Origin: Desulforamulus ferrireducens
GTDB lineage: Bacteria; Bacillota; Desulfotomaculia; Desulfotomaculales; Desulfotomaculaceae
Direction of reading: 5' to 3'
DNA length: 64,000 nucleotides
Assembly: GCF_002005145.1 (NCBI RefSeq)
Contig: NZ_CP019698.1
Location: 868,001 to 932,000 of the forward strand
A program made the translations under genes and the position numbers. The notes under the pieces were generated by a model. The model was not told the DNA's origin and ran no database searches. It was given only the letters and a program-made list of their open reading frames with translations. Positions 19,090 to 58,829 of this stretch are shown here, in pieces. The number at the start of each line of letters is the position of its first letter. Position 1 is the first letter of the stretch.

Positions 19090-19778
19090 CATAGCTCTTT
19101 AACTAATTTATTTAAAGCTCTTTTCTCAATGCGTGATACATAGGAACGGGAGATGCCTAGTGCGCGGGCAATTTCCCGCTGGGTCTTGCGACTGGAATTG
19201 CCCAGACCAAAACGCATTTCCAGCACTTTTTTTTCTCGGTTGCTTAATTTACGAACCTTTTCCAATAGACGATTCTTTTCAAAGGTAATTTCCACAGTAT
19301 CTGCTACTACCTCTGGGTCGGTACCCAGAATATCAATAAGACTTATTTCATTACCTTCTTTGTCAACTCCAATGGGATCATAAAGTGAAACCTCTGCCTT
19401 TACTTTTTTGATAAACCTTAAGTGCATCAGAATTTCATTTTCAATACAGCGAGCAGCATAGGTTGCCAGACGAGTACCCTTGTCTGGTTTAAAGGTGTTA
19501 ATTGCCTTAATTAGACCGATGGTTCCGATGGAAATTAAATCATCAACGTCCTCTCCTGTGGAGTCAAATTTCTTGACGATATGAGCCACTAACCGGAGGT
19601 TTCTTTCTGTAAGGACGTTGCGTGCGTCTTCATCCCCCTTCGCCAGCATGCCAAGATAATGGGACTCTTCCTTTTCATTTAGAGGTTGGGGAAAGGTGTT
19701 GTTGGCGATGTAGGAAACCAGTGCCATCACACCATGGACAACCGACAGAAAAGCAGCCGTGCACAGGCCGGAAAGCAT
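19071..19778 (-). CDS. sigK: Sporulation sigma factor pro-sigma-K
   Basis: A 235-aa sigma-70 family factor that drives late mother-cell gene expression during sporulation. The hydrophobic N-terminal pro-sequence (about residues 1-20), normally cleaved by SpoIVFB, is present before ALVSYIANN. Region 2 ([36 protein letters not shown]) and the region 4 helix-turn-helix ([24 protein letters not shown]) are complete. ATG 19778 is used; an in-frame TTG sits just upstream. Unlike Bacillus subtilis the gene is not split by a skin element. A 247-bp internal piece is duplicated at 46100. Confidence 0.95.
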
Positions 19779-20415: not shown

Positions 20416-20523
20416 TGGTTTTGTCAACACAAAAGTTGACCACTTGTGATAAAGTAAAAGTTGACCGGCCCCGATATTAAATGGTAAAGTGACAGATAAT
20501 TCTGCCTACAATAGCACTTATCA

Positions 20524-21300
20524 TTATTCATTATTAAGTTGTTGAGATGTGTTTGCTATGGATCTTTGCTGCAGGGTTTCACGAAAACGATAGCTTTCGC
20601 CGTTCATTAGATGGATATCAGCCCTGTGGGTTAAACGATCAATCAAGGCCTCGGTCATGCGCACATCTCCAAAAACCTCGGGCCACTTTTCAAAGTCCAG
20701 GTTGGTTGTAACAATGATGCTGCCAAGCTCATGCCTGGTTGAGCAAAACTGAAATAATAGTTCAGCACCGGTTTTACTAAATGGAATATAGCCAAGTTCA
20801 TCCAATATTACCAGTTCGTCACGCATCCACTCCTTTTCCAGCTTTAGTAAACGGTGTTCTTCGCGGGCGGTTACTAACTCCTCCACCCAGCGGGCGGCTT
20901 GATAAAATCTTACCTTGCGGCCTTGCTGACAAGCAGCCAAGCCAAGGGCAGTGGCTAAATGAGTCTTTCCTGTTCCGGAATTACCCATGAAAATTATGTG
21001 ACGTTTTTCTTCTATGTATTGGCCCTGGGTTAAAGCCAATATACGGGTTTTGCTAACACTGGGTATCAGACTGAAGTCAAAGGTTTCCAGGTTTTTAACC
21101 TGTGGAAAACGTGCCTGCTTTATCCTGCGGGCTACGGTGTTTTCTTCTCGCTGGTCTAGTTCATATCGCAGTAAAACACTTAAAAATTCCAAGTGGTTAA
21201 AATCCCTGTCCTGTGTTTCCCGCAGCAGATCGGACAGTGCCTTGGCTGCTGCCGGCAGTCTTAACTCCTTTAGATAATGGGAAACCGTCATTATGTTCAT
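20524..21300 (-). CDS. istB: IS21 helper ATPase IstB
   Basis: A 258-aa AAA+ ATPase that assists IstA and controls target choice. Walker A is GNSGTGKTHLATA (about 105-117) and Walker B VILDELGYIPF. Its ATG overlaps the istA stop by four bases (ATGA), the standard IS21 arrangement. Confidence 0.95.
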   Translation of the reverse strand: MNIMTVSHYLKELRLPAAAKALSDLLRETQDRDFNHLEFLSVLLRYELDQREENTVARRIKQARFPQVKNLETFDFSLIPSVSKTRILALTQGQYIEEKRHIIFMGNSGTGKTHLATALGLAACQQGRKVRFYQAARWVEELVTAREEHRLLKLEKEWMRDELVILDELGYIPFSKTGAELLFQFCSTRHELGSIIVTTNLDFEKWPEVFGDVRMTEALIDRLTHRADIHLMNGESYRFRETLQQRSIANTSQQLNNE

Positions 21301-22823
21301 GCCCCAACACCACCTTTAAGCAAGCTGGCATAACGGTGCAGCTGGGTAGGGGCTATTTGACTTGGCGTTATGCTTACCGGTGTTCGGGCAATGCTTTCCG
21401 GTTTTGAAGGTGGCCTGTCGATAATATCCGCCAATTGTTCTACCTCTGCCGGCAACAGCCTGCTTTGTTCCAGTGCCAGAATTAAGGCGCTGCTTAATAT
21501 GTGGACAGGATAGCGGCGCAGCAGTAACAATACATTTACAAAACGCCGGTCGCCTTCTGCCGGGTCAATTCGCTGTACAGCCTGATGGTACTGGGCAAAG
21601 GGGGCGGGAAGATTAGCCTGCCGTACCGGTTTGGCTTGGCCAACAGAGCGAGGTTTTCTTTCTAGTAGTTTTAGGTAATGTTCCAGCCGGAACTTTTGTT
21701 TGCCTGCCTCGTAACATCGTTCATGGGTAGCCAGCTTGGTTTGTTGATAGTAGATTTCAATTTTATCTACATAGCCTTTGACGGTAACCATTTTACCTGT
21801 GTACTCAGTGGGCACAGAATACTGGTTTCGGTCAAACTGCACCAGGCTAAAGCGGTTTACTTTTGCCTCTTTTCTAGTGCAGCAGTCAAATGTATGAACA
21901 GAGAGGGGTAACAGCTTGTCCTGTTCAAGTGTAAAGGCTTCCCAGAAACTTTGCCGATTGCGGCCCCTTGGTTTTGTGTTAAGTTTCCGGCAGCGTCCCT
22001 CGATCCAGTTGTTAAGGGCATCTATCGTAGGAAATTCAGGTACCGGTGTAAAAATGTGCCACTTAACATAGCGAGCCAAGCTCTCAACGCCGCCTTTTTC
22101 ATTACCCTTGGCACGGTTACAAAAGTCACTGTCAAAACCATGATGGGCGCGAAACTTGATAAAAGCATCCTGTTCTTCCCGTTTACGACCTACCAGCATA
22201 CGTTTAACGGCAGTCTTTAGATTATCATAAAGAATGCTTTGCGGGACCCCATTGAAAAATGCAAACGCCTTTTCGTGAGCATCGAAAAATGCTTCTTGCC
22301 TCTGATGTGGATAAAATCTGACGTAGAAAGCTTTGCTGTTGCTGAAGCGTATTAGAAATACATCGCCGTTAATATCCCGGCCGTTGATTTTAACCGTGGC
22401 AGGAGTCCAATCACATTGGGCACGGCCAACCGGATCATGTTCCAGGGGAACATATGTTTCGGCACGTTCGATATTCAGTTGTTGCTTAATTTCCCTGACC
22501 CAGCCCCGGACGGTTGAATCACAGCCGGTAAAGCCTTTCTCTTCTTGAAGGCGTTCAAAGATACGGCTGGCGGTGTAACGTTGTTTGTGTGGAGCATTAA
22601 GGTTTTCAACTATCCATTCGCGGATAATTGGTAAAAACTGTTCCTTAAGCGGTGCGGGTGGGGAAACTTTTCGTTTGTAACGTGTGACCTCTTCCACAGA
22701 ACCATAAAGTATTTTGCGGATGGTCTGCCGGGCAAGACCAGTTTCTCTAGAAATTTGTCTTATTGATTTGCGTTCCTTGATGTGAAGATCTTTGATATAC
22801 TTATAAGTGTCCACCTTGATCAT
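21297..22823 (-). CDS. istA: IS21 transposase IstA
   Basis: A 508-aa DDE transposase. An N-terminal helix-turn-helix (ERKSIRQISRETGLARQTI, about 17-35) is followed by the integrase core beginning at QCDWTPATVKI and containing NLKTAVKRML, then a C-terminal beta domain. It differs from copy 2 at one noticed residue (H versus P in the segment NLNAPxKQ). Confidence 0.95.
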   Translation of the reverse strand: MIKVDTYKYIKDLHIKERKSIRQISRETGLARQTIRKILYGSVEEVTRYKRKVSPPAPLKEQFLPIIREWIVENLNAPHKQRYTASRIFERLQEEKGFTGCDSTVRGWVREIKQQLNIERAETYVPLEHDPVGRAQCDWTPATVKINGRDINGDVFLIRFSNSKAFYVRFYPHQRQEAFFDAHEKAFAFFNGVPQSILYDNLKTAVKRMLVGRKREEQDAFIKFRAHHGFDSDFCNRAKGNEKGGVESLARYVKWHIFTPVPEFPTIDALNNWIEGRCRKLNTKPRGRNRQSFWEAFTLEQDKLLPLSVHTFDCCTRKEAKVNRFSLVQFDRNQYSVPTEYTGKMVTVKGYVDKIEIYYQQTKLATHERCYEAGKQKFRLEHYLKLLERKPRSVGQAKPVRQANLPAPFAQYHQAVQRIDPAEGDRRFVNVLLLLRRYPVHILSSALILALEQSRLLPAEVEQLADIIDRPPSKPESIARTPVSITPSQIAPTQLHRYASLLKGGVGA

Positions 22824-23172
22824 CCTTTTCTACCTGCCTTTGCTGTTGTCTTGTCAACTCCAGCATAGCAGGTTTGATGGTCAGGGTGGTCAACTTTTTC
22901 TTTAGCATTTTCTTTTCTGGTGGTCAATTTTTATTCTAGCAAATACAACCGGAATGCCTTTTTTGATTTATCTAAAGATGTTGAGCTGCCCCCATGTTCA
23001 GTACCATAGGGAATGTTAGTCATGACACTTATACACAGACCTTTGCAGACAAATATGGTAAGCGACAAACCCGCCGTCACCTAGAATCACACATACAAAA
23101 CTGATACACTGGGCTATGAAAAACTTGAAAAACCACTAGTGGTAATTCAAGACGAACAGGAGTATCAGCAAT

Positions 23173-42850: not shown

Positions 42851-43136
42851 GATAATTAAGCAAGCCAGGCAAAAAAGAGGCTGGGTCAAAAAACGGAAAT
42901 GGCCCGGCTAGATTTCTTATTGTCTTTTTTCAATAATTACGTTGTACATTAAAAATTTTTAGGGACTTGCATTTTTTTCATAGGTGAGAGGACGAGGGTT
43001 AGTCGCCCCCCTCCTACTCTATTTAAGGATATCATTATTCTAAATATGATCCAGCGACATATATTTAGTAAAATTCGAAAATTATGTCAAATTTTATTGT
43101 TATTAGCAGGATTTTTTAGATGGAGGTGCAAATATA

Positions 43137-43865
43137 ATGAGTTATTCTAACACGGAAGAGGCGACTCGATTGTCAACTACTGTATTTTATAAGAAACTAA
43201 TTATAAAGAATAGTGGTTGGGATTATTTGCTAAAATTTTTTATCGAAAAACAATACTCAAGCGAAAGAAAATCTGGTTTCCTAACAATTTCCTCCGGCCA
43301 TGATTATTATGAATTTAATTATATATATAGACAGCCTGTTTATATATGGCAGTACAACTTTAAAACAGGAACAATTGATAAGGTTGAGTCATTCACTACT
43401 GAATTAGCTGAGGTTTATATAGACAAAAGATTAGGGCTACTAGAGGCAAGAGGGAAAAAGACGGTTGTCTCAAAGTTCATAAATGAATTACACTTATCTG
43501 GGAAAGATCTTGTAATTGATGATTTAGAAGTACACCCTAAAGTAATATTAAGGTATCTAGGACATAATGGGTTAGACTTTTCTATAACAAGGGTTCGAAT
43601 AAGAGATTTTCAGATCAACGAGAATATCAGCGGCAATTGTACATTGAGGGTTAAAGGATATAAGGAGTCACTTCAGATTATTGAAGACTATTACGAGCAA
43701 ATTGATTGTATAAATTTTGAACTTAATTATTTATCTAATAAGCCAGTAAATGTGACTATTTACAAAACGGGAAGAATGGTGATAGGAAAAGTTGAGGACT
43801 TGACAGATAAAGATATATTAGAAGAATTAAGAAAAATTGTTTCCGGAGTGATTAAAAATGTCTGA
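43137..43865 (+). CDS. Unknown protein, first gene of three-gene operon
   Basis: A 242-aa soluble protein with no family recognised. It is rich in aromatic and charged residues, with alternating beta-type stretches (GFLTISSGHDYYEFNYIY, YIWQYNFKTGTI) and a helical C-terminus (DKDILEELRKIVSGVI). GATGGAGGTG precedes the ATG by about eight bases. Its 3' end overlaps the next gene by eight bases. Composition is AT-rich compared with the flanking IS elements, suggesting a transferred unit. The partner-based guess is a specificity or sensor subunit, not supported by homology. Confidence 0.75.
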   Translation: MSYSNTEEATRLSTTVFYKKLIIKNSGWDYLLKFFIEKQYSSERKSGFLTISSGHDYYEFNYIYRQPVYIWQYNFKTGTIDKVESFTTELAEVYIDKRLGLLEARGKKTVVSKFINELHLSGKDLVIDDLEVHPKVILRYLGHNGLDFSITRVRIRDFQINENISGNCTLRVKGYKESLQIIEDYYEQIDCINFELNYLSNKPVNVTIYKTGRMVIGKVEDLTDKDILEELRKIVSGVIKNV

Positions 43866-44817
43866 AGAACAAGGGGTATCGGGTAACCATTGGACCAAGG
43901 GAGCAGTTGGTCTTTTAACTAAATTAGGTTGGGAACAAAAAGGGGCGTGTAATATTGATATTCCTTGTACCCAGCACGCGTCAAGGAAAAATCCCCATGG
44001 CATAGATATTTTTTTTCAATATTTTGAGCCATACGAGAATAAGGATTTAGGTATTATTGTTGAAACAAAGAGAAGGGTATGGAGTGGTGCTAGTAGTGCG
44101 TCAATTGAAGAGTTTTTAGAGCAAACAATTTCAACATTGGAATGTGCACCTTACCACCCAACTTTTTCAGAAAAATATGATTTTTATGGTCAAGTAGAAA
44201 CAGCTCTAATTCTAATCTGGTATCATTCCAAGGATAGTAAAAGAACACCAGAATATGACCATGATAAATACTTACAGTATATATCTAAAGTTAAAGCACC
44301 TAGGAAAAGGAAAGAAATGAATGTTTTTATTGCTTCTAATTATGACATTTTACGTTGGTGCTCAATAATTGATACTGTTGAAAAAATATGCTACGAAAAA
44401 AAGGCACACTTTGATTACTATTACCCATGTATAAACCACAATAATTCTTTGAGAAAACCATACTTAAGTTTAGTCCATTTGTTTTCTGCCTATATCTTTG
44501 GGAAATTTAGCTATATAGAAGATGATGGTGAACTGGGGCGAACTAGACATGTATCTGTAGTTTTCTCTAGTGATAGGCCTACGCTTACTAATTTAATGAT
44601 TCTATATTCCGCTGTAAAGAAGTACATGCTGGACGATGTTCACGAACTTTGGCTATATTTTTATGATGATCTTCTTGAATATAGATCTTATTGTGAGCAA
44701 TTTAAACGTTCAGTTAAAGAAGAGTTAAATAAACAACAAAAGAAACTAAAGATAGAAATCCTGGAATTGCCTAGATATATCGATCCTCCAGGGTGGCTTT
44801 GGAACGGAGCTGAATAG
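43858..44817 (+). CDS. Putative PD-(D/E)XK-type nuclease, second gene of operon
   Basis: A 319-aa protein. The N-terminus has a helix (HWTKGAVGLLTKLGWEQKG), then HGIDIFFQYF (D50) and LGIIVETKRR (E69-T-K71), the D...ExK arrangement of restriction-like nucleases. The rest is helical and basic, with a long Lys-rich helix near 280-300. It overlaps the first gene by eight bases and is one base from the third. DNA or RNA cleavage is inferred from the motif only. Confidence 0.75.
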   Translation: MSEEQGVSGNHWTKGAVGLLTKLGWEQKGACNIDIPCTQHASRKNPHGIDIFFQYFEPYENKDLGIIVETKRRVWSGASSASIEEFLEQTISTLECAPYHPTFSEKYDFYGQVETALILIWYHSKDSKRTPEYDHDKYLQYISKVKAPRKRKEMNVFIASNYDILRWCSIIDTVEKICYEKKAHFDYYYPCINHNNSLRKPYLSLVHLFSAYIFGKFSYIEDDGELGRTRHVSVVFSSDRPTLTNLMILYSAVKKYMLDDVHELWLYFYDDLLEYRSYCEQFKRSVKEELNKQQKKLKIEILELPRYIDPPGWLWNGAE

Positions 44818-44818
44818 T

Positions 44819-45904
44819 ATGTTAGAGTATCCTGATAAGCATTCTATTTTTCAAATTCTTAATTCAAACAATTTTATTCCTCAATCAAGTGCTAGAAAGT
44901 TATTGCAACAGAAGGGGATATTTATTCTGAACTCTAGCCGGGAATCATTATCTAGCTTGGGAAGTAAAATTTTTTGGGGTGCTGAAGATATATATACTAT
45001 AAAGCAAATGACTGACAAGGAGTCTAACCTAAAAAAGGTTTCAAGGCTATACTTAAAAAACAATGAACTGTCCCCAGATAATATTAAAGATATGGTACAA
45101 TCGGCCTCTTCATTACTTGCTCAGAAGGAAAGTATTATACTAAATAATCCAATTAAGCTTGAGGATGGTAGCTACAAAATAACTGGGAGCTATATTAAGG
45201 AAAATCCAGGCAAGGTTCAACTTCTGGATAAAGTTGAAAAAGATTTTTCAGTAAAATGCAGGCAACTGCCTAGTAAGCAAATCGTAATAGATTATAGTTT
45301 TTCTGACGAGACTGACCAACGCATAATCAAAAAGGTATTTGATATAGTTCAGAAAAGGGATCCTGAAAAACCAGCCTTTGAAATTGAAAGTATAAATATT
45401 GAGTTGTTAAGTATTGAAAAAAGAATACGTTTATTTGATAAATTTTTTGAATTTAGTTTTACTGAATGGGAGATCGTAAAAGTATCTCAACTAACCATAA
45501 AGAAAGATGAAAGCAAGGAACGATCTGAAGAAGAGCGAGATGTTACAACTGATGATCTTGAGGGAATTACCAAAGCAATACTTGATGGCTCGGGGCTGCG
45601 AAGAAATTCGTTTGTTCTCGATTGCATTAGCAAGGGATTTTATTTTATATCAGCTAAGATTAGGTTAGAACATAAAAAGGACCCCCTAGTTATTGAAATT
45701 GAGATATCTTTCAAACCTAAACTAGATGTAAAGATGGCAAGTATTAAGGAATTGCATGAGGATGGCCTTAAGAATTCTTTTATGAATCCTACTGAACAGG
45801 AAGAATTGCTAAATTATTTTCAAGATATCATATATGGGATTTATCAAAATTTATTAAACCAAAAAGTCCTTAATGTCGTAGATCATTATAATAAAGAAAT
45901 ATAA
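44819..45904 (+). CDS. Unknown protein, third gene of operon
   Basis: A 361-aa protein of no recognised family. The N-terminal ~60 residues (SIFQILNSNNFIPQSSARKLLQQKGIFIL) look like a small helical nucleic-acid-binding or SAP-like fold. A charged linker (KKDESKERSEEERD) near 230 separates it from a C-terminal alpha/beta part. ATG follows the previous stop by one base. A terminator closes the operon at 46014. It may be a DNA-binding or scaffold partner of the nuclease-like protein. Confidence 0.75.
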   Translation: MLEYPDKHSIFQILNSNNFIPQSSARKLLQQKGIFILNSSRESLSSLGSKIFWGAEDIYTIKQMTDKESNLKKVSRLYLKNNELSPDNIKDMVQSASSLLAQKESIILNNPIKLEDGSYKITGSYIKENPGKVQLLDKVEKDFSVKCRQLPSKQIVIDYSFSDETDQRIIKKVFDIVQKRDPEKPAFEIESINIELLSIEKRIRLFDKFFEFSFTEWEIVKVSQLTIKKDESKERSEEERDVTTDDLEGITKAILDGSGLRRNSFVLDCISKGFYFISAKIRLEHKKDPLVIEIEISFKPKLDVKMASIKELHEDGLKNSFMNPTEQEELLNYFQDIIYGIYQNLLNQKVLNVVDHYNKEI

Positions 45905-46013: not shown

Positions 46014-46060
46014 AAAAAAGGGGCTGACCTAATTTGCTTTTAGGTTGGTCCCTTTTTAAT
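46014..46060 (+). terminator. Terminator of the three-gene operon
   Basis: AAAAAGGGGCTGACCTAA pairs with TTAGGTTGGTCCCTTTTT in a strong stem with a T-rich 3' side and A-rich 5' side, so it can act in both directions. Confidence 0.85.
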
Positions 46061-46099
46061 TAAGGTGACATCTATAAACAGATAAACAGTTAATGTTAA

Positions 46100-46346
46100 T
46101 TCATTACCTTCTTTGTCAACTCCAATGGGATCATAAAGTGAAACCTCTGCCTTTACTTTTTTGATAAACCTTAAGTGCATCAGAATTTCATTTTCAATAC
46201 AGCGAGCAGCATAGGTTGCCAGACGAGTACCCTTGTCTGGTTTAAAGGTGTTAATTGCCTTAATTAGACCGATGGTTCCGATGGAAATTAAATCATCAAC
46301 GTCCTCTCCTGTGGAGTCAAATTTCTTGACGATATGAGCCACTAAC
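46100..46346 (-). pseudogene. Duplicated internal fragment of sigK (247 bp)
   Basis: By direct comparison it is identical to 19347-19593 of intact sigK, covering part of region 2 (AHIVKKF to [11 protein letters not shown]). It ends exactly where IS21 copy 2 begins. It lacks the promoter, pro-sequence and region 4, so it cannot make a sigma factor. Confidence 0.97.
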
Positions 46347-46470
46347 TGTATTTGCTAGAATAAAAATTGACCACCAGAAAAGAAAATGCTAAAGAAAAAG
46401 TTGACCACCCTGACCATCAAACCTGCTATGCTGGAGTTGACAAGACAACAGCAAAGGCAGGTAGAAAAGG

Positions 46471-47997
46471 ATGATCAAGGTGGACACTTATAAGTATATC
46501 AAAGATCTTCACATCAAGGAACGCAAATCAATAAGACAAATTTCTAGAGAAACTGGTCTTGCCCGGCAGACCATCCGCAAAATACTTTATGGTTCTGTGG
46601 AAGAGGTCACACGTTACAAACGAAAAGTTTCCCCACCCGCACCGCTTAAGGAACAGTTTTTACCAATTATCCGCGAATGGATAGTTGAAAACCTTAATGC
46701 TCCACCCAAACAACGTTACACCGCCAGCCGTATCTTTGAACGCCTTCAAGAAGAGAAAGGCTTTACCGGCTGTGATTCAACCGTCCGGGGCTGGGTCAGG
46801 GAAATTAAGCAACAACTGAATATCGAACGTGCCGAAACATATGTTCCCCTGGAACATGATCCGGTTGGCCGTGCCCAATGTGATTGGACTCCTGCCACGG
46901 TTAAAATCAACGGCCGGGATATTAACGGCGATGTATTTCTAATACGCTTCAGCAACAGCAAAGCTTTCTACGTCAGATTTTATCCACATCAGAGGCAAGA
47001 AGCATTTTTCGATGCTCACGAAAAGGCGTTTGCATTTTTCAATGGGGTCCCGCAAAGCATTCTTTATGATAATCTAAAGACCGCCGTTAAACGTATGCTG
47101 GTAGGTCGTAAACGGGAAGAACAGGATGCTTTTATCAAGTTTCGCGCCCATCATGGTTTTGACAGTGACTTTTGTAACCGTGCCAAGGGTAATGAAAAAG
47201 GCGGCGTTGAGAGCTTGGCTCGCTATGTTAAGTGGCACATTTTTACACCGGTACCTGAATTTCCTACGATAGATGCCCTTAACAACTGGATCGAGGGACG
47301 CTGCCGGAAACTTAACACAAAACCAAGGGGCCGCAATCGGCAAAGTTTCTGGGAAGCCTTTACACTTGAACAGGACAAGCTGTTACCCCTCTCTGTTCAT
47401 ACATTTGACTGCTGCACTAGAAAAGAGGCAAAAGTAAACCGCTTTAGCCTGGTGCAGTTTGACCGAAACCAGTATTCTGTGCCCACTGAGTACACAGGTA
47501 AAATGGTTACCGTCAAAGGCTATGTAGATAAAATTGAAATCTACTATCAACAAACCAAGCTGGCTACCCATGAACGATGTTACGAGGCAGGCAAACAAAA
47601 GTTCCGGCTGGAACATTACCTAAAACTACTAGAAAGAAAACCTCGCTCTGTTGGCCAAGCCAAACCGGTACGGCAGGCTAATCTTCCCGCCCCCTTTGCC
47701 CAGTACCATCAGGCTGTACAGCGAATTGACCCGGCAGAAGGCGACCGGCGTTTTGTAAATGTATTGTTACTGCTGCGCCGCTATCCTGTCCACATATTAA
47801 GCAGCGCCTTAATTCTGGCACTGGAACAAAGCAGGCTGTTGCCGGCAGAGGTAGAACAATTGGCGGATATTATCGACAGGCCACCTTCAAAACCGGAAAG
47901 CATTGCCCGAACACCGGTAAGCATAACGCCAAGTCAAATAGCCCCTACCCAGCTGCACCGTTATGCCAGCTTGCTTAAAGGTGGTGTTGGGGCATGA
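46471..47997 (+). CDS. istA: IS21 transposase IstA (copy 2)
   Basis: A 508-aa DDE transposase almost identical to the copy at 21297 (one noticed difference, NLNAPPKQ). Helix-turn-helix and integrase core are intact. Confidence 0.95.
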   Translation: MIKVDTYKYIKDLHIKERKSIRQISRETGLARQTIRKILYGSVEEVTRYKRKVSPPAPLKEQFLPIIREWIVENLNAPPKQRYTASRIFERLQEEKGFTGCDSTVRGWVREIKQQLNIERAETYVPLEHDPVGRAQCDWTPATVKINGRDINGDVFLIRFSNSKAFYVRFYPHQRQEAFFDAHEKAFAFFNGVPQSILYDNLKTAVKRMLVGRKREEQDAFIKFRAHHGFDSDFCNRAKGNEKGGVESLARYVKWHIFTPVPEFPTIDALNNWIEGRCRKLNTKPRGRNRQSFWEAFTLEQDKLLPLSVHTFDCCTRKEAKVNRFSLVQFDRNQYSVPTEYTGKMVTVKGYVDKIEIYYQQTKLATHERCYEAGKQKFRLEHYLKLLERKPRSVGQAKPVRQANLPAPFAQYHQAVQRIDPAEGDRRFVNVLLLLRRYPVHILSSALILALEQSRLLPAEVEQLADIIDRPPSKPESIARTPVSITPSQIAPTQLHRYASLLKGGVGA

Positions 47998-48770
47998 ACA
48001 TAATGACGGTTTCCCATTATCTAAAGGAGTTAAGACTGCCGGCAGCAGCCAAGGCACTGTCCGATCTGCTGCGGGAAACACAGGACAGGGATTTTAACCA
48101 CTTGGAATTTTTAAGTGTTTTACTGCGATATGAACTAGACCAGCGAGAAGAAAACACCGTAGCCCGCAGGATAAAGCAGGCACGTTTTCCACAGGTTAAA
48201 AACCTGGAAACCTTTGACTTCAGTCTGATACCCAGTGTTAGCAAAACCCGTATATTGGCTTTAACCCAGGGCCAATACATAGAAGAAAAACGTCACATAA
48301 TTTTCATGGGTAATTCCGGAACAGGAAAGACTCATTTAGCCACTGCCCTTGGCTTGGCTGCTTGTCAGCAAGGCCGCAAGGTAAGATTTTATCAAGCCGC
48401 CCGCTGGGTGGAGGAGTTAGTAACCGCCCGCGAAGAACACCGTTTACTAAAGCTGGAAAAGGAGTGGATGCGTGACGAACTGGTAATATTGGATGAACTT
48501 GGCTATATTCCATTTAGTAAAACCGGTGCTGAACTATTATTTCAGTTTTGCTCAACCAGGCATGAGCTTGGCAGCATCATTGTTACAACCAACCTGGACT
48601 TTGAAAAGTGGCCCGAGGTTTTTGGAGATGTGCGCATGACCGAGGCCTTGATTGATCGTTTAACCCACAGGGCTGATATCCATCTAATGAACGGCGAAAG
48701 CTATCGTTTTCGTGAAACCCTGCAGCAAAGATCCATAGCAAACACATCTCAACAACTTAATAATGAATAA
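47994..48770 (+). CDS. istB: IS21 helper ATPase IstB (copy 2)
   Basis: A 258-aa AAA+ ATPase identical by eye to copy 1, with Walker A GNSGTGKTHLATA and a four-base overlap with istA. Confidence 0.95.
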   Translation: MNIMTVSHYLKELRLPAAAKALSDLLRETQDRDFNHLEFLSVLLRYELDQREENTVARRIKQARFPQVKNLETFDFSLIPSVSKTRILALTQGQYIEEKRHIIFMGNSGTGKTHLATALGLAACQQGRKVRFYQAARWVEELVTAREEHRLLKLEKEWMRDELVILDELGYIPFSKTGAELLFQFCSTRHELGSIIVTTNLDFEKWPEVFGDVRMTEALIDRLTHRADIHLMNGESYRFRETLQQRSIANTSQQLNNE

Positions 48771-48881
48771 TGATAAGTGCTATTGTAGGCAGAATTATCT
48801 GTCACTTTACCATTTAATATCGGGGCCGGTCAACTTTTACTTTATCACAAGTGGTCAACTTTTGTGTTGACAAAACCATAT

Positions 48882-51353
48882 GTTACTAGACTACCTATGA
48901 GGGATTGAAACTACCTATAACTACAGTGAGCATGAGCCCCCGGCAATCGTTACTAGACTACCTATGAGGGATTGAAACCAGCATTTCCTCTTCCGGAGGT
49001 GGAATAAATGGCGAGTTACTAGACTACCTATGAGGGATTGAAACATCCTCCACCACTAATGGCCGCATCCCTGGCAAAGCAGGTTACTAGACTACCTATG
49101 AGGGATTGAAACCTGTTTGGTATGGTCTTAGAATTGTCATGCGTTGGCTGGTTACTAGACTACCTATGAGGGATTGAAACCCACTCGTTTTCCATTTAGT
49201 TTGCCTTGGGATTTCCTTGTTACTAGACTACCTATGAGGGATTGAAACGCGTATTGCGAAGCTCCGTAAATGTCCGTGGACGTTGTTACTAGACTACCTA
49301 TGAGGGATTGAAACTAGGCAAATTCATGTTCAAGGGTCTTAACATCAGCTGTTACTAGACTACCTATGAGGGATTGAAACTTGATTGAATACCGCAGTAA
49401 TTGGAACCTGAAAATCAGTTACTAGACTACCTATGAGGGATTGAAACTCAGCTACCAGCCTGGCAGAAGCAAGCCTAAGAGTAGTTACTAGACTACCTAT
49501 GAGGGATTGAAACCCAAAGGACTAAGGAACAAATCAAAAAGTACCGCCTTGTTACTAGACTACCTATGAGGGATTGAAACCCACATATGCTGGCGGCGGT
49601 AATATTGGTAGCAAACGTTACTAGACTACCTATGAGGGATTGAAACTAACTTTCAGTCGCAAAGTCAGATGGGCGAAGTAAGTGTTACTAGACTACCTAT
49701 GAGGGATTGAAACTCTTATGGCCGACTGGGAGTTAAAAATCGAACTTCCGTTACTAGACTACCTATGAGGGATTGAAACACTTTGCCAACACCCTGGCTC
49801 TGCGGTTTTCAAGCGTTACTAGACTACCTATGAGGGATTGAAACGCCGTAGAAATCAATGGTGGCAACTTTCATACATCTCGTTACTAGACTACCTATGA
49901 GGGATTGAAACTTGGGGTCTCCGTGATTATGGAGTGCCCGGTCAGTTGGTTACTAGACTACCTATGAGGGATTGAAACACTCAATCCCCATATACTTCCG
50001 GAAATATCTCAGGGTTACTAGACTACCTATGAGGGATTGAAACATGATAATCACGCAATTCTGCCTCTATGTAGGCTCTGGTTACTAGACTACCTATGAG
50101 GGATTGAAACATGCTGGGCACTCAATCATGTGTGTGCTGGAAATGCACGTTACTAGACTACCTATGAGGGATTGAAACCAGACCTTGAAGTAAGGGAAAT
50201 TGAGGAAGCTGCACGTTACTAGACTACCTATGAGGGATTGAAACAATTGTATCTGCGCATTGGCACTAATAAGGCCTACGAAGTTACTAGACTACCTATG
50301 AGGGATTGAAACTTGCTGGACGTGTTAAGATACTGCCTCGTGCGTTTTGTTGTAGATTCTCAAATTAAAATGGCTGGAAATTTTCCAATTTAGCCAGATT
50401 AAATAATCTGAGAACAAGAAACTATTCTCAAATTAATTTGGAAAAGTAATGGGGTCGTTCATCGGAGCGAAGCGTAGATCCTTGACATGGAGAATGCCCG
50501 TGTTAGCCTCTATGGCAAGGGGCACCAGGCGTAGCAGGGTTGCCTCTTATGCCCCTTGAAACACGGGTGCGAGGCTCCATGTCAAGGACGACCTGATACC
50601 ACACCATCATAATTTGAGAATTTTAAGCATTATATGTGCCATCTCAGATTATTTAATCTGAAAATTTTTTCGTAATTAATTTGAGAATTGACATTTTGTT
50701 ACTAGACTACCTATGAGGGATTGAAACTTGGATGTAAGGCATGTGATATTCCTCCTTGGTTTGTTACTAGACTACCTATGAGGGATTGAAACATCATATC
50801 TCTTGAAACTGTTCGCCAATTTAGGGTGTTACTAGACTACCTATGAGGGATTGAAACATCATATCTCTTGAAACTGTTCGCCAATTTAGGGTGTTACTAG
50901 ACTACCTATGAGGGATTGAAACTTGGTGATGCCATTGAGCAATACAAAAAACTGGCCAAGTTACTAGACTACCTATGAGGGATTGAAACCCTCATCTGGG
51001 ATGAGTTGGACGCTAAGAACATCACCTGTTACTAGACTACCTATGAGGGATTGAAACCCGTCAAGTTTATTGACGCCCGGGGAGTTCCACCGAACGTTAC
51101 TAGACTACCTATGAGGGATTGAAACATGATACTGGGAACGGATACACAAGCAGAGGACAAGGGGTTACTAGACTACCTATGAGGGATTGAAACCTGGCGG
51201 TGCTTAAAGAAGCATATCCCAAAGCTAAGTTACTAGACTACCTATGAGGGATTGAAACAAGTTGAAGAACTTGGGGTACGACATGAAGGTCCGTGTTACT
51301 AGACTACCTATGAGGGATTGAAACTAAAATCAAATAACAGCATAACAGTATAA
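48882..51353 (+). CRISPR. CRISPR array 2, 32 repeats, leaderless remnant
   Basis: Same 30-bp repeat and orientation as array 1. By manual count there are 32 repeats, 31 full spacers and one truncated spacer (51325-51353). The left edge is IS21 and the right edge is the end of a DDE transposon, so neither leader nor trailer remains. A 343-bp MITE interrupts it at 50351. Two adjacent spacers (50793, 50858) are identical, and spacer 51058-51095 matches one in array 1. Confidence 0.97.
50351..50693. mobile_element. 343-bp MITE inside CRISPR array 2
   Basis: Terminal inverted repeats TGTAGATTCTCAAATTAA and TGTCAATTCTCAAATTAA (inward) and a 6-bp target duplication TTTTGT at 50345-50350 and 50694-50699. 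Further TTCTCAAATTAA-like sites and CAGATTATTTAATCTG dyads lie inside each end. The centre is a 108-bp palindrome (50480-50587). No ORF. Its ends match the transposon that starts at 51354. Confidence 0.92.
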
Positions 51354-53848: not shown

Positions 53849-54445
53849 CTAAAGGGTTATACTATTCCCGCGAGAAGCCATAAAAGATTTGTTGGATTGT
53901 GCAAAAAACCTTGTGGAGAAGGTTTGGACTGTAGGAAAGTCGGTTGTCACAATACTCAACACTTTTTTGGCTTCTTTCCTTATGGCCATCTCCTCCGGCA
54001 ACTTAATTTCTGGCACTAACTGTCGTAGCACCAATTTGATAAAGACCAGGTTATTCTTAAACCTTTTCCGATAGAACTGTAAATGTTGCCTATGCCAGTT
54101 AACATAAGCTGCGAGAGCTTTAAGAAAAGGCAACAGGTTGAAGAATTGGCAAAGCAAATTAATCCAAATGAGAGCTAGTGAGTATTGATAGTATGGCAGA
54201 CAGAAGGATGGTAAGCAAGAAAAGGTGTGTCCACACCTGGGGCAATAATACCTGCGGATTAAGATCCTGCCGGTGAAGCCAAAAGAAATGATATTGCGGC
54301 TGTAATAACCGTAGGGTCTGGGTGGAATAGGCAATCGGCAGTCTGGGTGAAGACAACTATGGGGTTTGAGAAAAGGAAACCTTTTTCCTGCCCGGTAATA
54401 TTCCAAAGGCGTTGATTGAGTGTAAAAAATGAGTTGCAAGGTCAT
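53849..54445 (-). CDS. DUF6431-type zinc-ribbon protein of the transposon
   Basis: A protein of about 198 aa with two metal-binding pairs, CLHPDC and CPRCGHTF, separated by an aromatic/basic stretch (RPYGYYSRNI), then a helical C-terminus. Such proteins accompany the ATPase/transposase pair and may recognise DNA ends or targets (inference). The start is uncertain: ATG 54445, or TTG 54439 with GAGGTG six bases upstream. The gene lies 148 bases upstream of the transposase. Confidence 0.72.
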   Translation of the reverse strand: MTLQLIFYTQSTPLEYYRAGKRFPFLKPHSCLHPDCRLPIPPRPYGYYSRNIISFGFTGRILIRRYYCPRCGHTFSCLPSFCLPYYQYSLALIWINLLCQFFNLLPFLKALAAYVNWHRQHLQFYRKRFKNNLVFIKLVLRQLVPEIKLPEEMAIRKEAKKVLSIVTTDFPTVQTFSTRFFAQSNKSFMASRGNSITL

Positions 54446-55475
54446 CACCTCACAACTCAGTATTTCCTTAAGAAATACCAATTTATTTGAGAAATATTCT
54501 TGTTTTATTTTAGTGGTTATCTGGTTTGCAGATTATTTAATTAGTGAAATACTTGGTCATTCTGTTCAAGATAAAATGAGGATTTACACTTGGGTACAAT
54601 TTGAAGTTGTCAATAGGGAACACAGTTATCCGAAGTCAAATACAAATTGGGCAAATCACGCCGTGAGGACTGCGGACCCAAGAAAAACTTTACAGTTTCC
54701 CTCAAAGGACAATATTTTTTCAATGAATCATAAGGAATGGCAGGAGCTTAAATATGTGTTCGATATTGCACAAGGCATTATTACAAACGCAACAGTTCCA
54801 GTTCCTCTAAGGTTTAAATATCAGGACAAGGTGATGTCAATGCAACGAAAGGTAGCATCGACCGTTGCTCGTAGAACAGACACAGTCCTGATTCACGCCA
54901 GCGATCCAGCATGTATAAAAGATGTTAAAACACAAGCCAATATTCTATTACACAAAGACAACAGTACTTGTATGGCATGGCGTATGGATATGGCGAAACT
55001 GTTTGAACGATATGTTCAGCATATAGTATCGAAAAGCATAAATGAGCTATCTGGCACAGTTATCAATAATGGGAAAATTACCGGTAAAGGAAATATTCCT
55101 CACTGGGGTTTAAAATATCTTGAGCCGGATATTATGATCAAATTTAGCAATAGTATTTACATGGGTGATGCTAAGTATAAAGCGCATTTCTATGCCCGTG
55201 GAACAAAATCTGAAGCATTGAATGAGACGCATAGGTCAGACCTTCATCAGTTATTGGCTTACTGTTCATTTGAGCCTCAATTACACAAGACTGGTATATT
55301 GTTTTATCCAGCAAAAACGTTAAGCTTTCAAAAAATACATTATTCAGACAGGAACGGCGGCATCTGTAATAAAGTTATTCTTTTTGGGCTTCCATTTGGA
55401 GTGGCTGAGATGAAAGATGCGACAGTTAAGATTAAAGAACTTTTCCAAAACGATATGCTTAAAATTATTAACTAA
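54429..55475 (+). pseudogene. McrC-like restriction subunit, N-terminally truncated
   Basis: The open frame is 348 codons, but the first ~40 are read from transposon end DNA. The homologous part begins near KMRIYTW and contains the McrC/LlaJI-type core: ELKYVFDIAQGII, AWRMDMAKLFERYVQHI, and the nuclease-like LEPDIMIKF...MGDAKYK (D...D-x-K). No McrB GTPase is adjacent. The gene has probably lost its N-terminus and partner, so it is likely inactive. Confidence 0.65.
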
Positions 55476-55631: not shown

Positions 55632-56126
55632 ATGGTAAATAAAGCAGATGCCGTTGAGATAATTTCATATGCAGAAGATAACGGGATTGACATTTGGTTA
55701 GATGGTGGTTGGGGAGTTGATGCGCTATTAGAAATGGAAACAAGGGCGCACAACGATATAGATATATTCGTGGAAAAAATCAATAGTAAAAAATTTATAG
55801 ATATAATAAAAGAAAAGGGCTTTGCCGAAATTAAAGAAGCGTATACAACTGCATCTCACACGGTTTGGAAAGACGCTAAAGATAGGATAATTGATCTTCA
55901 TATATTTGAATTTACCGAACAAGGATACCTTATTTTTGAGGGAGAAACATATCCCTCAAGCGTATTCAGTGGTATTGGGAAAATAGGCGATAAAGTGGTA
56001 AAGTGTATTGATGCGGAAAATCAAGTTTTATTTCATTTAGGGTATGAGCATGATGAAAATGATGTACATGATGTAAGACTACTGTGCGAGAGATTCAATA
56101 TTCCGGTTCCGAATGAATATAAGTAA
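55632..56126 (+). CDS. Lnu-type nucleotidyltransferase (lincosamide/aminoglycoside)
   Basis: A 164-aa nucleotidyltransferase with the signature WLDGGWGVDALL (about 22-33) and HNDIDIFVEK (metal Asp pair), and the length of LnuA/LnuC enzymes. Those adenylylate lincosamides; some relatives act on aminoglycosides or have unknown substrates, so the drug cannot be fixed from sequence. GGAGGGGACGT precedes the ATG. Confidence 0.8.
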   Translation: MVNKADAVEIISYAEDNGIDIWLDGGWGVDALLEMETRAHNDIDIFVEKINSKKFIDIIKEKGFAEIKEAYTTASHTVWKDAKDRIIDLHIFEFTEQGYLIFEGETYPSSVFSGIGKIGDKVVKCIDAENQVLFHLGYEHDENDVHDVRLLCERFNIPVPNEYK

Positions 56127-56166
56127 CTTAAAGTAGACAAGGGGACAGTTTTCTCGTCTTAATTTA

Positions 56167-56355
56167 GATGGGCTATGGATAAAACAATGACTCGTCAGTT
56201 AGTATTGGATGCCCTTTACTAAGCAGTAATGAGATAACGCCCCGCAGCAGGTCTAATACATCATTCGGATCTACGCCAGTTATAAGTATCAACAAACATT
56301 AAGGGGTTATGGGATAATTACCAGCATGAACCGTAAAGGCAATGGACAGGATTGA
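56167..56355 (+). pseudogene. Degenerate IS3-family OrfB remnant
   Basis: Recognisable as MTRQLVLDALY, then RPAAGLIHHSD and finally the MSRKGN-like region, interrupted by several stop codons and shifts. It is an old transposase scar unrelated to the two intact IS3 types. Confidence 0.65.
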
Positions 56356-56408
56356 TGACACAAAATTGAACCCCTAGAATAACGATAGGGTGTGCAAAGA
56401 GCACGCAG

Positions 56409-56438
56409 CGGCAGGATGAAAAATCCTGTCGTTTTTTG
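56409..56438 (+). terminator. Terminator
   Basis: CGGCAGGAT / ATCCTGTCG stem with loop GAAAA (56409-56431) and a run of six T residues. Confidence 0.88.
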
Positions 56439-56550
56439 TTAGATAAAAAACAGAACATTAAAAAAGATTAAATCGAAAAGAATAATTGATGCAACTGAAA
56501 TAAAAAACCGTAAATTCTGACGAGGCTGTGAAAATTCTACTGATTCAGGA

Positions 56551-56745
56551 TTGAAGCTACCGCCTGATCCCAAGGGAAAACATATCTGGTGTACGGTTAC
56601 CATCAACGACAGGTGACAGATTGTTATCCCGAAAGAAGTACGTGATACCTTTGATTTGAAAAGCGGCGACAGGCTTGTGGTGATGGGAGCGGATGGTGAA
56701 AGTATTGTACTGCAGAAGTTTTTGAAGAAATGCCTCGCAGGATAA
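56551..56745 (+). pseudogene. AbrB/SpoVT-type regulator with in-frame stop
   Basis: Reads GKHIWCTVTINDR, then TGA (56614-56616), then QIVIPKEVRDTFDLKSGDRLVVMG, the classic AbrB-family swapped-hairpin motif with its Gly codon replaced by a stop. In relatives this regulator often precedes a transporter or glycosyltransferase gene, as here. Confidence 0.75.
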
Positions 56746-56775
56746 TGAGTGCTGCTGGAAAGGTTGGTGAGTAAG

Positions 56776-57963
56776 ATGAAGATTGCATGGTTTTGTATTC
56801 CTGCCCACGGTCATATCAATCCTACTCTAGGACTTGTGAAAGAGATGATTGATGCAGGACATGAGGTGACTTATTTTTCTTTTGAGAAATTCAGGAAAAA
56901 GATTGAGGGTACGGGAGCGACATTTGTTTCCTGCGATGCATATGATCTGGATATCGACGCAAAGGACGGCGGCAACAGAGTAGGCAAGGATCTTGCTTTC
57001 TCCATCGAGTTGATTGTTGAATCCACTCTGGCAATGGATGGTCTGATAAGTCGGGTAATACCGGACATGAAGCCAGACCTGATTGTTGCGGATTCCATGG
57101 CTTACAGTGGTAAATTGGCGGCAATGAAGTTTGGAATTCCTTATGTTTGTTCTACTACCACGTTTGTATTTAACCGATACTCTGCGAAATACATGGATCA
57201 AGGCATGGGAGGTTTGTTCAGCACACTTCTTGCTCTGCAAAAAATCAAAAGACAGTTGAAAAGGCTTCAGGTGATGGGATATCCGGTAAAAAGCTTTTTA
57301 GAACTGATTACAAATGACAATGAGACCTATACGATTGTATATACGTCGAAGGAGTTTCAGCCCTATGCCGAGACTTTTTCTGATAAATACTGCTTCATCG
57401 GTCCATCCATTCGTCCAGTGACGAATCCTATGGAAAAGACTGCAGAGAAGACGGTGTATATCTCCATGGGCACGGTTGTAAGCAACAGGGAGATGTATGA
57501 GAACTGCGTGGAAGCGCTTCGGGGAACGGACTATCAAGTGATTGTATCCATGGGTGAGACGACTAATGAATTCTCGAATCTTCCTGAGAATATACAGGTG
57601 TATGATTCTGTGGATCAGATGGCGGTATTGAATATTGCGGATGCATTTGTCACACACTGCGGTATGAATTCTGCATCAGAAGGACTGTATTTCGAGGTTC
57701 CGCTGGTTCTGGCACCACAGACACCGGAGCAGTGGGCTGTGGCAAAACGCACGGAAGAACTGGGGGCAGGTGTGATGCTGCCAGCTTCCGGAAGGTCAGT
57801 GGAGGAGATTAAGAATGCCATCGAGAAGGTGCTGAATGATGGTGCTTATAAAGCAGCGGCAACCGAAATCTCGAAAGGGTTCAAAAGATGCGGTGGAGTA
57901 AAAGAAGCCAGAGCATTTCTGGAGAAAATCGTGAAACAGAGTCAAATTTCAGTTTGTCGATAA
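56776..57963 (+). CDS. Macrolide-type glycosyltransferase (GT1 family)
   Basis: A 395-aa GT-B enzyme: N-terminal acceptor domain starting MKIAWFCIPAHGHINPTLGL, and C-terminal nucleotide-sugar domain with VYISMGTVVSN and FVTHCGMNSASEGLYFEVP (about 295-315). Close to MGT enzymes that inactivate macrolides by glycosylation, though natural-product substrates are also possible. ATG 56776 follows GGTGAG and begins the conserved domain directly. Confidence 0.85.
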   Translation: MKIAWFCIPAHGHINPTLGLVKEMIDAGHEVTYFSFEKFRKKIEGTGATFVSCDAYDLDIDAKDGGNRVGKDLAFSIELIVESTLAMDGLISRVIPDMKPDLIVADSMAYSGKLAAMKFGIPYVCSTTTFVFNRYSAKYMDQGMGGLFSTLLALQKIKRQLKRLQVMGYPVKSFLELITNDNETYTIVYTSKEFQPYAETFSDKYCFIGPSIRPVTNPMEKTAEKTVYISMGTVVSNREMYENCVEALRGTDYQVIVSMGETTNEFSNLPENIQVYDSVDQMAVLNIADAFVTHCGMNSASEGLYFEVPLVLAPQTPEQWAVAKRTEELGAGVMLPASGRSVEEIKNAIEKVLNDGAYKAAATEISKGFKRCGGVKEARAFLEKIVKQSQISVCR

Positions 57964-57967
57964 ACCC

Positions 57968-57995
57968 TTTAACGATAGTAGTTATCGTTAAAAAG
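57968..57995 (+). terminator. Terminator
   Basis: TTTAACGATA / TATCGTTAAA inverted repeat with a 5-base loop just after the glycosyltransferase stop; an A/T tract follows. Confidence 0.65.
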
Positions 57996-58085
57996 TGCAG
58001 TGGATATGTTTCCACGAACGTGTATGGTGATATGACATATGGTTTGCTGAGTATAAACAATTAATTAATTTGGAGGTAAAATTAA

Positions 58086-58829
58086 ATGATATTTGATCCC
58101 AATAACCCTATTATTAAACTCTGCATGAGTGGGATGGGATTGGAGGACAGCGGAAACAGTGAGGATGCAATCACGATGTTTCAAAAAGCATGGGACGAAG
58201 CAACAGATTACTATGAAAGATTTATCGCATCTTATCATTTAGCTCGTTTACAAAAGAGTATTACAGAAAAATTAAAATGGATGAAGACATCTCTACAGTG
58301 TGCCCTAAAGATAAATGATGATAATGTTAAGAGTGCATACCCAACGTTATATTTAAACATTGCCAAATGTTATGAGGAGTTGGGTGATTCTGAGAATGCA
58401 AAAAGAAATTATGAATTGTCAAATTCAGCTAAGGGCAAACCTTCTGATAAAGGGCCATTTTACCATGGGACAAAGGCAGATTTGAAAGTTGGTGATTTAC
58501 TTACAGCGGGTGGAATTTCAAATTACAAACCCGAACTTAAAATGGACCACATTTATTTCACTGCTAATGTCAATGTTGCAGGACTTGCAGCAACATTAGC
58601 AAAAGGAGAAGGAAGGGAACGCATTTATATAGTAGAACCAACAGGTGAATTTGAAAACGACCCAAATGTTACTGACAAAAAATTCCCTGGTAACTTAACA
58701 CGTTCTTATCGATCGAAAGATCCTCTAAGAATTATTGGTGAAGTAACGGAGTGGGCAAAACTGACACATAAGGAGCGACGTGAATGGCGTGAAGAGATAG
58801 ACAAAAATAAAGGCGAAATTATTAACTAA
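58086..58829 (+). CDS. arr: TPR-fused rifamycin ADP-ribosyltransferase (Arr)
   Basis: A 247-aa protein. Residues about 120-235 are an Arr domain: FYHGTKADLKVGDLL, HIYFTA, RIYIVEPTGEFENDPNVTDKKFPGN, and RSYRSKDPLRIIGEV. Arr transfers ADP-ribose from NAD to rifamycins. Residues about 1-115 are TPR-like helices (GNSEDAITMFQKAWDEA, NIAKCYEELGDSENAKRNYEL), not present in the classic ~140-aa Arr enzymes. ATTTGGAGG precedes the ATG. Confidence 0.88.
   Translation: MIFDPNNPIIKLCMSGMGLEDSGNSEDAITMFQKAWDEATDYYERFIASYHLARLQKSITEKLKWMKTSLQCALKINDDNVKSAYPTLYLNIAKCYEELGDSENAKRNYELSNSAKGKPSDKGPFYHGTKADLKVGDLLTAGGISNYKPELKMDHIYFTANVNVAGLAATLAKGEGRERIYIVEPTGEFENDPNVTDKKFPGNLTRSYRSKDPLRIIGEVTEWAKLTHKERREWREEIDKNKGEIIN

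What the first reader, a model, noticed from the sequence alone, without database searches (positions are those of the whole stretch)
43137..45904. Unrecognised three-gene operon with a PD-(D/E)XK-like protein: candidate defence system
Seen: three genes overlapping by 8 bases and spaced by 1 base, sharing one terminator, AT-rich, bounded on the left by group II intron tails and on the right by IS21 and a CRISPR array. The middle protein has D50...E69-x-K71 after an N-terminal helix, the layout of restriction-type nucleases. The other two match no family I can name. Known: defence systems cluster with CRISPR loci and mobile elements as compact co-transcribed genes. Inference: this is a multi-subunit anti-phage or anti-plasmid module.
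Basis: partly seen in the sequence, partly recalled or inferred. Interest (0 to 1): 0.78.

Follow-up and report, generated by a model that had tools for sequence, protein, structure and literature searches.

The report
Diverged 3HP-type phage-defence nuclease operon
A three-gene operon in a repeat- and transposon-rich chromosome region is a distant, gene-order-shuffled relative of a little-understood bacterial anti-phage system called 3HP, and it suggests that such systems pair a restriction-type DNA-cutting enzyme with a protein shaped like DNA-gripping clamp proteins.

Summary
In detail: three intact, overlapping, AT-rich genes A (43137-43865), B (43858-44817), C (44819-45904), with a strong stem-loop terminator. 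All three are homologues of the three components of Rst_3HP, a prophage system reported to protect E. coli against phage P1: profile-profile probability A~Hp3 99.1%, B~Hp1 99.7%, C~Hp2 99.5%, all six cross-comparisons below 1%. B also hits GapS4a. The window operon belongs to a separate clade (11 loci: Bacillota, haloarchaea, prophages) with gene order A-B-C instead of 3HP's B-C-A; the two orders split the B tree at 100/100. B has a PD-(D/E)XK nuclease core; D50, E/D69 and K71 are conserved in 25/25 sequences, E in all A-B-C and D in all 3HP members. The C model matches CHL4/CENP-N/IML3 and phage RdgC, known to share one DNA-binding fold with the phage-exclusion protein RexA (PMC11077077). Most likely it is a mobile anti-phage/anti-plasmid module: a C(+A) DNA-binding clamp that recruits or licenses nuclease B. 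New variant of a known kind. The mechanism is inferred; no activity was shown.

The parts
43118..43136 (+). Leader with ribosome-binding site (ATGGAGGTGCAAATATA) before gene A
   Evidence: Read directly from the sequence
43137..43865 (+). Gene A (242 aa), homologue of 3HP Hp3; function unknown, proposed partner of C
   Evidence: Profile-profile 99.1% to Hp3; window A alone against the Hp3 profile 36 bits, E 2e-13 for a one-sequence search; no Pfam, PADLOC or NCBIfam hit
43858..44817 (+). Gene B (319 aa), PD-(D/E)XK nuclease-like, homologue of 3HP Hp1 and GapS4a; H47-G-x-D50 ... E69-x-K71
   Evidence: NCBIfam GapS4a E 1.3e-10, PADLOC Hp1 E 1.9e-4, phrog_7059 E 7.6e-11, profile-profile 99.7% to Hp1, AF2 model pLDDT 84.6, catalytic residues in 25/25 homologues
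44819..45904 (+). Gene C (361 aa), homologue of 3HP Hp2; helical N-terminal domain then two beta-sheet/helix domains with an acidic disordered linker; RdgC/RexA/CHL4-like fold predicted
   Evidence: phrog_6531 E 2.1e-11, the same family as Hp2; profile-profile 99.5% to Hp2; AF2 pLDDT 75.3; Foldseek CHL4/CENP-N/IML3 and phage RdgC
46015..46057 (+). Intrinsic terminator (18-bp stem, 7-nt loop, U tract)
   Evidence: Folding -24.9 kcal/mol, z -4.15

Best explanation
The operon is a horizontally acquired three-subunit defence module of the 3HP/GAPS4-like superfamily. Shown here: A, B and C are homologues of Hp3, Hp1 and Hp2; they travel together; B keeps a complete PD-(D/E)XK catalytic site in a predicted nuclease-core fold. 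Predicted: C, perhaps with A, is a two-domain RdgC/RexA/IML3-CHL4-type DNA-binding clamp or horseshoe with an N-terminal helical docking domain. Inferred: the C(+A) clamp loads onto incoming phage or plasmid DNA (free ends, replication or recombination intermediates, or unusual DNA) and positions or activates nuclease B, which cuts that DNA and stops the infection. No ATPase, helicase or methyltransferase is encoded in the operon, so recognition would have to come from DNA structure or from a phage-made trigger rather than from modification status.
For: One-to-one homology of all three subunits to Rst_3HP with negative off-diagonals; same PHROG families for B and C as for the 3HP proteins. 3HP was reported as three genes with no clear domain that protect against P1 (PMC9122126), and the E. 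coli locus L017 matches the PADLOC 3HP models at full length. Conserved A-B-C synteny in 11 loci of Bacillota, haloarchaea and prophages or phage-like contigs. Distance matrices of A, B and C correlate (rho 0.66-0.84, 0/1000 shuffles), as for a co-inherited complex. D50, [E/D]69 and K71 in 25/25 in a confident alpha-beta-beta-alpha-beta model; HamA and BamHI are among the fold matches. C matches CHL4, CENP-N and IML3 and phage RdgC, and PMC11077077 states that RexA, RdgC, IML3 and CHL4 share one DNA-binding fold. Sporadic distribution (1 of 113 genomes of the class, none of the other genus members) and residence on mobile elements.
Against: No activity was tested in any A-B-C member. PADLOC recognises only B, weakly. 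Foldseek TM-scores are low for both models, and for B the top matches are spurious (rmsd 15-20 A). The C model is of medium confidence (pLDDT 75), sequence profiles of A and C against RdgC are not significant, and A was not modelled. Most of the proteins are acidic overall, not what a simple DNA clamp would suggest. In RexA, DNA binding was not strictly required for exclusion (PMC11077077).
Confidence: 0.72

Rival explanations
1. Abortive-infection toxin: A and C restrain nuclease B, and a phage product releases it to cut host DNA or RNA and kill or arrest the cell, rather than B cutting phage DNA selectively.
For: Other phage-borne systems such as PARIS work this way (PMC9122126); the genes are tightly coupled; nothing found here shows self/non-self discrimination.
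Against: All three genes persist together and C has a DNA-binding type of fold, which fits targeting better than mere inhibition; no antitoxin-like protein was recognised.
Confidence: 0.25
2. A recombination or repair accessory operon of mobile elements (RdgC-like DNA-binding protein plus nuclease), helping the element rather than fighting others.
For: C resembles RdgC, a recombination-associated protein; homologues sit in prophages and plasmids.
Against: The homologous 3HP system protected E. coli against P1 when cloned (PMC9122126); the cassette is an accessory insertion with no fixed place in the element.
Confidence: 0.1
3. A decaying remnant in an IS-rich region, no longer functional.
For: Surroundings are full of IS copies, an intron tail and a cut sigma gene; gene A of one relative (L013) is broken into fragments.
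Against: All three window genes are full length with the catalytic site, ribosome-binding site and terminator intact.
Confidence: 0.07

Closest known systems
Rst_3HP (Hp1-Hp2-Hp3; Rousset et al. 2022, PMC9122126)
   Same: All three subunits homologous one to one; compact operon; resident on prophages, plasmids and other mobile elements; PD-(D/E)XK-type site in Hp1/B
   Different: Gene order Hp3-Hp1-Hp2 (A-B-C) instead of Hp1-Hp2-Hp3; catalytic acid E (GxD...ExK) instead of D (PxD...DxK); 13-18% mean identity between the clades; A and C below PADLOC detection; hosts Bacillota and haloarchaea rather than Proteobacteria
GAPS4 (GapS4a, NCBIfam NF047933; Gamma-Mobile-Trio anti-phage systems)
   Same: B is homologous to GapS4a over residues 1-197 (E 1.3e-10)
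   Different: 41 bits against a cut-off of 270; the partner gene of GapS4a could not be examined here
RdgC / lambda RexA / IML3-CHL4 (CENP-L/CENP-N) fold
   Same: Best fold matches of C; CHL4-like layout of an N-terminal helical domain followed by two sheet domains
   Different: No significant sequence similarity; medium-confidence model; here coupled to a nuclease in an operon
Hachiman HamA and BamHI (PD-(D/E)XK nucleases)
   Same: PD-(D/E)XK core among B's fold matches (E 6e-3)
   Different: Low TM-scores; no helicase partner here, unlike Hachiman

Membership tests
Rst_3HP | Homologues of Hp1, Hp2 and Hp3 adjacent in one operon | tested here: met
   hhalign 99.7, 99.5 and 99.1% on the diagonal, under 1% off it; window sequences alone hit the matching profiles
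Rst_3HP | Each protein recognised by its PADLOC model | tested here: not met
   Only B: Hp1 E 1.9e-4; A and C no hit
Rst_3HP | Gene order Hp1-Hp2-Hp3, as in every 3HP locus examined | tested here: not met
   Order is Hp3-Hp1-Hp2 in the window and its clade; the orders separate at 100/100 in the B tree
Rst_3HP | Anti-phage activity | not testable with these tools
   Reported for 3HP against P1 (PMC9122126); not tested for this branch
GAPS4 | GapS4a above the curated cut-off | tested here: not met
   41.1 of 270 bits
GAPS4 | GapS4b partner | not tested
   No GapS4b model or sequence was found in the libraries; the paper is not held
PD-(D/E)XK nuclease | Catalytic D ... [D/E]-x-K invariant | tested here: met
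   25/25 sequences
PD-(D/E)XK nuclease | Alpha-beta-beta-beta-alpha-beta core with the motif on two adjacent strands | tested here: met
   AF2 pLDDT 84.6; H3-22, E47-57 (D50), E62-74 (E69, K71), H80-99, E115-123; Foldseek support weak
PD-(D/E)XK nuclease | DNA cleavage | not testable with these tools
   Needs a biochemical assay
RdgC/RexA/IML3-CHL4 fold (protein C) | Fold match to members | tested here: inconclusive
   CHL4 E 1.3e-4, CENP-N E 5e-4, IML3 E 9e-3, phage RdgC E about 1e-4; TM-scores 0.2-0.4
RdgC/RexA/IML3-CHL4 fold (protein C) | Sequence profile similarity to RdgC | tested here: not met
   Best 25.9 bits, probability 3%

The most novel reading that the evidence does not exclude
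A and C form an IML3-CHL4-like heterodimeric DNA clamp that delivers captured foreign DNA to nuclease B: a distinct, ATP-independent class of defence complex shared by bacteria and haloarchaea, whose clamp subunits are prokaryotic relatives of the kinetochore proteins CENP-L/CENP-N and of RexA/RdgC.
Probability: 0.28. Interest if true: 0.75.

Novelty: new variant of a known kind. Interest (0 to 1): 0.52.

Why it matters
3HP was described as three genes with no clear predicted domain, and no mechanism was found for it in the library searched. Joining it to this diverged branch gives enough sequence diversity to see an invariant nuclease site in Hp1/B and a RdgC/RexA/CHL4-like fold in Hp2/C, so the mechanism becomes directly testable. 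It also widens the family from Proteobacteria to Bacillota and haloarchaea and shows that current defence-finding models miss the branch, two of whose three proteins are invisible to them.

Tried and rejected
Pfam, PADLOC and NCBIfam on single window proteins gave nothing for A and only chance-level hits for C. A scan of genome contigs with B alone failed; a family alignment worked. Viral scans with single A-B-C-clade proteins and with the C alignment found nothing. PDB sequence-profile searches gave no relative. Top Foldseek hits of B to acetyl-CoA carboxylase and Argonaute were rejected (rmsd 15-20 A, TM about 0.2). HAD and TssA hits in NCBIfam were rejected as chance (below cut-off). Sequence tests of A, B and C against an RdgC profile with a column-shuffled control were inconclusive. 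A propensity-based secondary-structure guess for A was too poor to use (53% agreement on C). A weak Pfam TBP hit in one A homologue (E 0.0043, below cut-off) is kept only as a lead. GAPS4 papers were searched for and are not in the library.

Full report
Observation. The three genes exist as described. A 43137-43865 (242 aa), B 43858-44817 (319 aa) and C 44819-45904 (361 aa) lie head to tail with an 8-nt overlap and a 1-nt gap, at 31-35% GC inside a 41-46% GC region, and end in a strong hairpin terminator. The left flank is the tail of a group II intron reverse transcriptase/maturase. The right flank is a fragment of a SigK-like sigma gene, then an IS21 element, then a CRISPR array.

What the proteins are. 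On their own A and C match nothing convincing in Pfam, PADLOC or NCBIfam, but B matches NCBIfam GapS4a (E 1.3e-10, well below its cut-off) and PADLOC Hp1, the first protein of Rst_3HP (E 1.9e-4). PHROG searches put B and C in the same families as the 3HP proteins of a Pseudomonas plasmid (phrog_7059 and phrog_6531).

Relatives of the same kind. In Exiguobacterium gene A appears broken into fragments. True 3HP loci from Vibrio, Aliarcobacter, E. coli, Pseudomonas, Azospirillum, Enterobacter and several phages all have the order B-C-A; the E. coli one matches the PADLOC 3HP models at full length, and one Vibrio phage record is annotated as Rst_3HP Hp1-Hp2-Hp3 in that order.

Are they homologous one to one? 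Profile-profile comparison of the A-B-C set against the B-C-A set gave A~Hp3 99.1%, B~Hp1 99.7% and C~Hp2 99.5%, and less than 1% for every wrong pairing. Each window protein alone also hits only its matching 3HP profile. In the tree of B, the 11 A-B-C loci and 14 B-C-A loci fall on opposite sides of a branch with 100/100 support. Distances of A, B and C are correlated within and between clades, as expected for subunits that travel together.

The nuclease. D50, [E/D]69 and K71 are present in all 25 B sequences. Every A-B-C member has GxD...ExK and every 3HP member has PxD...DxK, a clean marker of the two branches. An AlphaFold2 model of B (pLDDT 84.6) has the nuclease-core order: helix 3-22, strands 47-57 and 62-74 carrying the motif, helix 80-99, strand 115-123. 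HamA of Hachiman and BamHI are among its structure matches, but at E about 6e-3 and low TM, below spurious large-protein hits.

Protein C. The model (pLDDT 75.3) has an N-terminal helical domain and two sheet-plus-helix domains, the second with an acidic disordered stretch. Its best solved matches are CHL4 and CENP-N, with IML3 at rank 9; among viral proteins three of the six best are annotated RdgC, recombination-associated protein or exonuclease. These two result sets agree with each other: Adams et al. 2024 (PMC11077077) report that lambda RexA, RdgC, IML3 and CHL4 share one DNA-binding fold and that IML3 and CHL4 form a heterodimer. That A is the IML3-like partner is only a guess from its size and co-inheritance. 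A profile test against RdgC gave no significant sequence similarity, so the fold claim rests on structure prediction alone.

How it may work. Rousset et al. (PMC9122126) describe, among P2-hotspot systems, three genes with no clear predicted domain that protect against P1; matching this to Rst_3HP rests on the system's name and gene count. By homology the window operon is most likely an anti-phage or anti-plasmid module in which a C(+A) clamp engages foreign DNA and nuclease B cuts it. Shown: homology, synteny, intact catalytic site. Predicted: folds. Inferred: DNA engagement, order of events, target. An abortive-infection version in which B attacks the host is the main rival.

Distribution and mobility. 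In the class of the window organism 1 of 113 genomes carries it, and none of the other genus members; in a phylum sample 2 of 398. The relatives sit in prophages (in L009, and by eye L012, just after lysis genes), beside site-specific recombinases (L010, L015, L016), next to tmRNA (L013) or on plasmids. This is the pattern of a mobile accessory defence cassette. The CRISPR array next door is not needed for the argument.

Verdict. Confirmed observation, supported interpretation, new variant of a known kind. The main value is that the new branch exposes the catalytic core and a likely DNA-binding fold in a system that had neither described.

Noticed in passing
46043-46346 (-) and 19343-19593: Fragment of a SigK-like sporulation sigma gene, 99.6% identical to an intact 244-aa gene in the window; it is cut exactly where the IS21 copy begins (46347). 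A second intact copy with the same match score lies outside the window at G000:C1:951761, so the gene seems to be present in two full copies and one fragment.
   Followed up: partly
20416-22947 and 46347-48878: Two IS21 copies 99.9% identical in opposite orientation; other inverted near-identical IS copies at 23912-25905/35009-37004 and 37751-39304/60068-61621 suggest recent transposition and scope for inversions.
   Followed up: partly
13837-18724 and 48882-51324: Two large CRISPR arrays with the same 30-nt repeat (CRISPR-DR2) about 30 kb apart; the second has an exactly duplicated spacer (50762-50891).
   Followed up: no
54429-55475: McrC-like protein (McrBC restriction component, Pfam E 6.7e-10) without a recognised McrB beside it: a further defence-type gene near the operon.
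   Followed up: no
55632-58829: Row of genes resembling antibiotic-modifying enzymes: aminoglycoside nucleotidyltransferase-like, a glycosyltransferase (by eye), and a rifampin ADP-ribosyltransferase (Arr) with a TPR-like N-terminus.
   Followed up: no
L012 and L009: In two prophage-like loci the A-B-C cassette sits directly after the holin/endolysin genes (by eye), a typical spot for cargo genes.
   Followed up: partly
phage P1 record MH445380.1, 30821-31711: P1, the phage reported to be blocked by 3HP, encodes its own RdgC, the family that Hp2/C resembles in fold; possible trigger or coincidence.
   Followed up: no
L004, L005, L014 gene C: Haloarchaeal C proteins carry a C-terminal extension of about 70 residues, with a helix-hairpin-helix DNA-binding domain recognised in L004, absent from the bacterial ones.
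   Followed up: no
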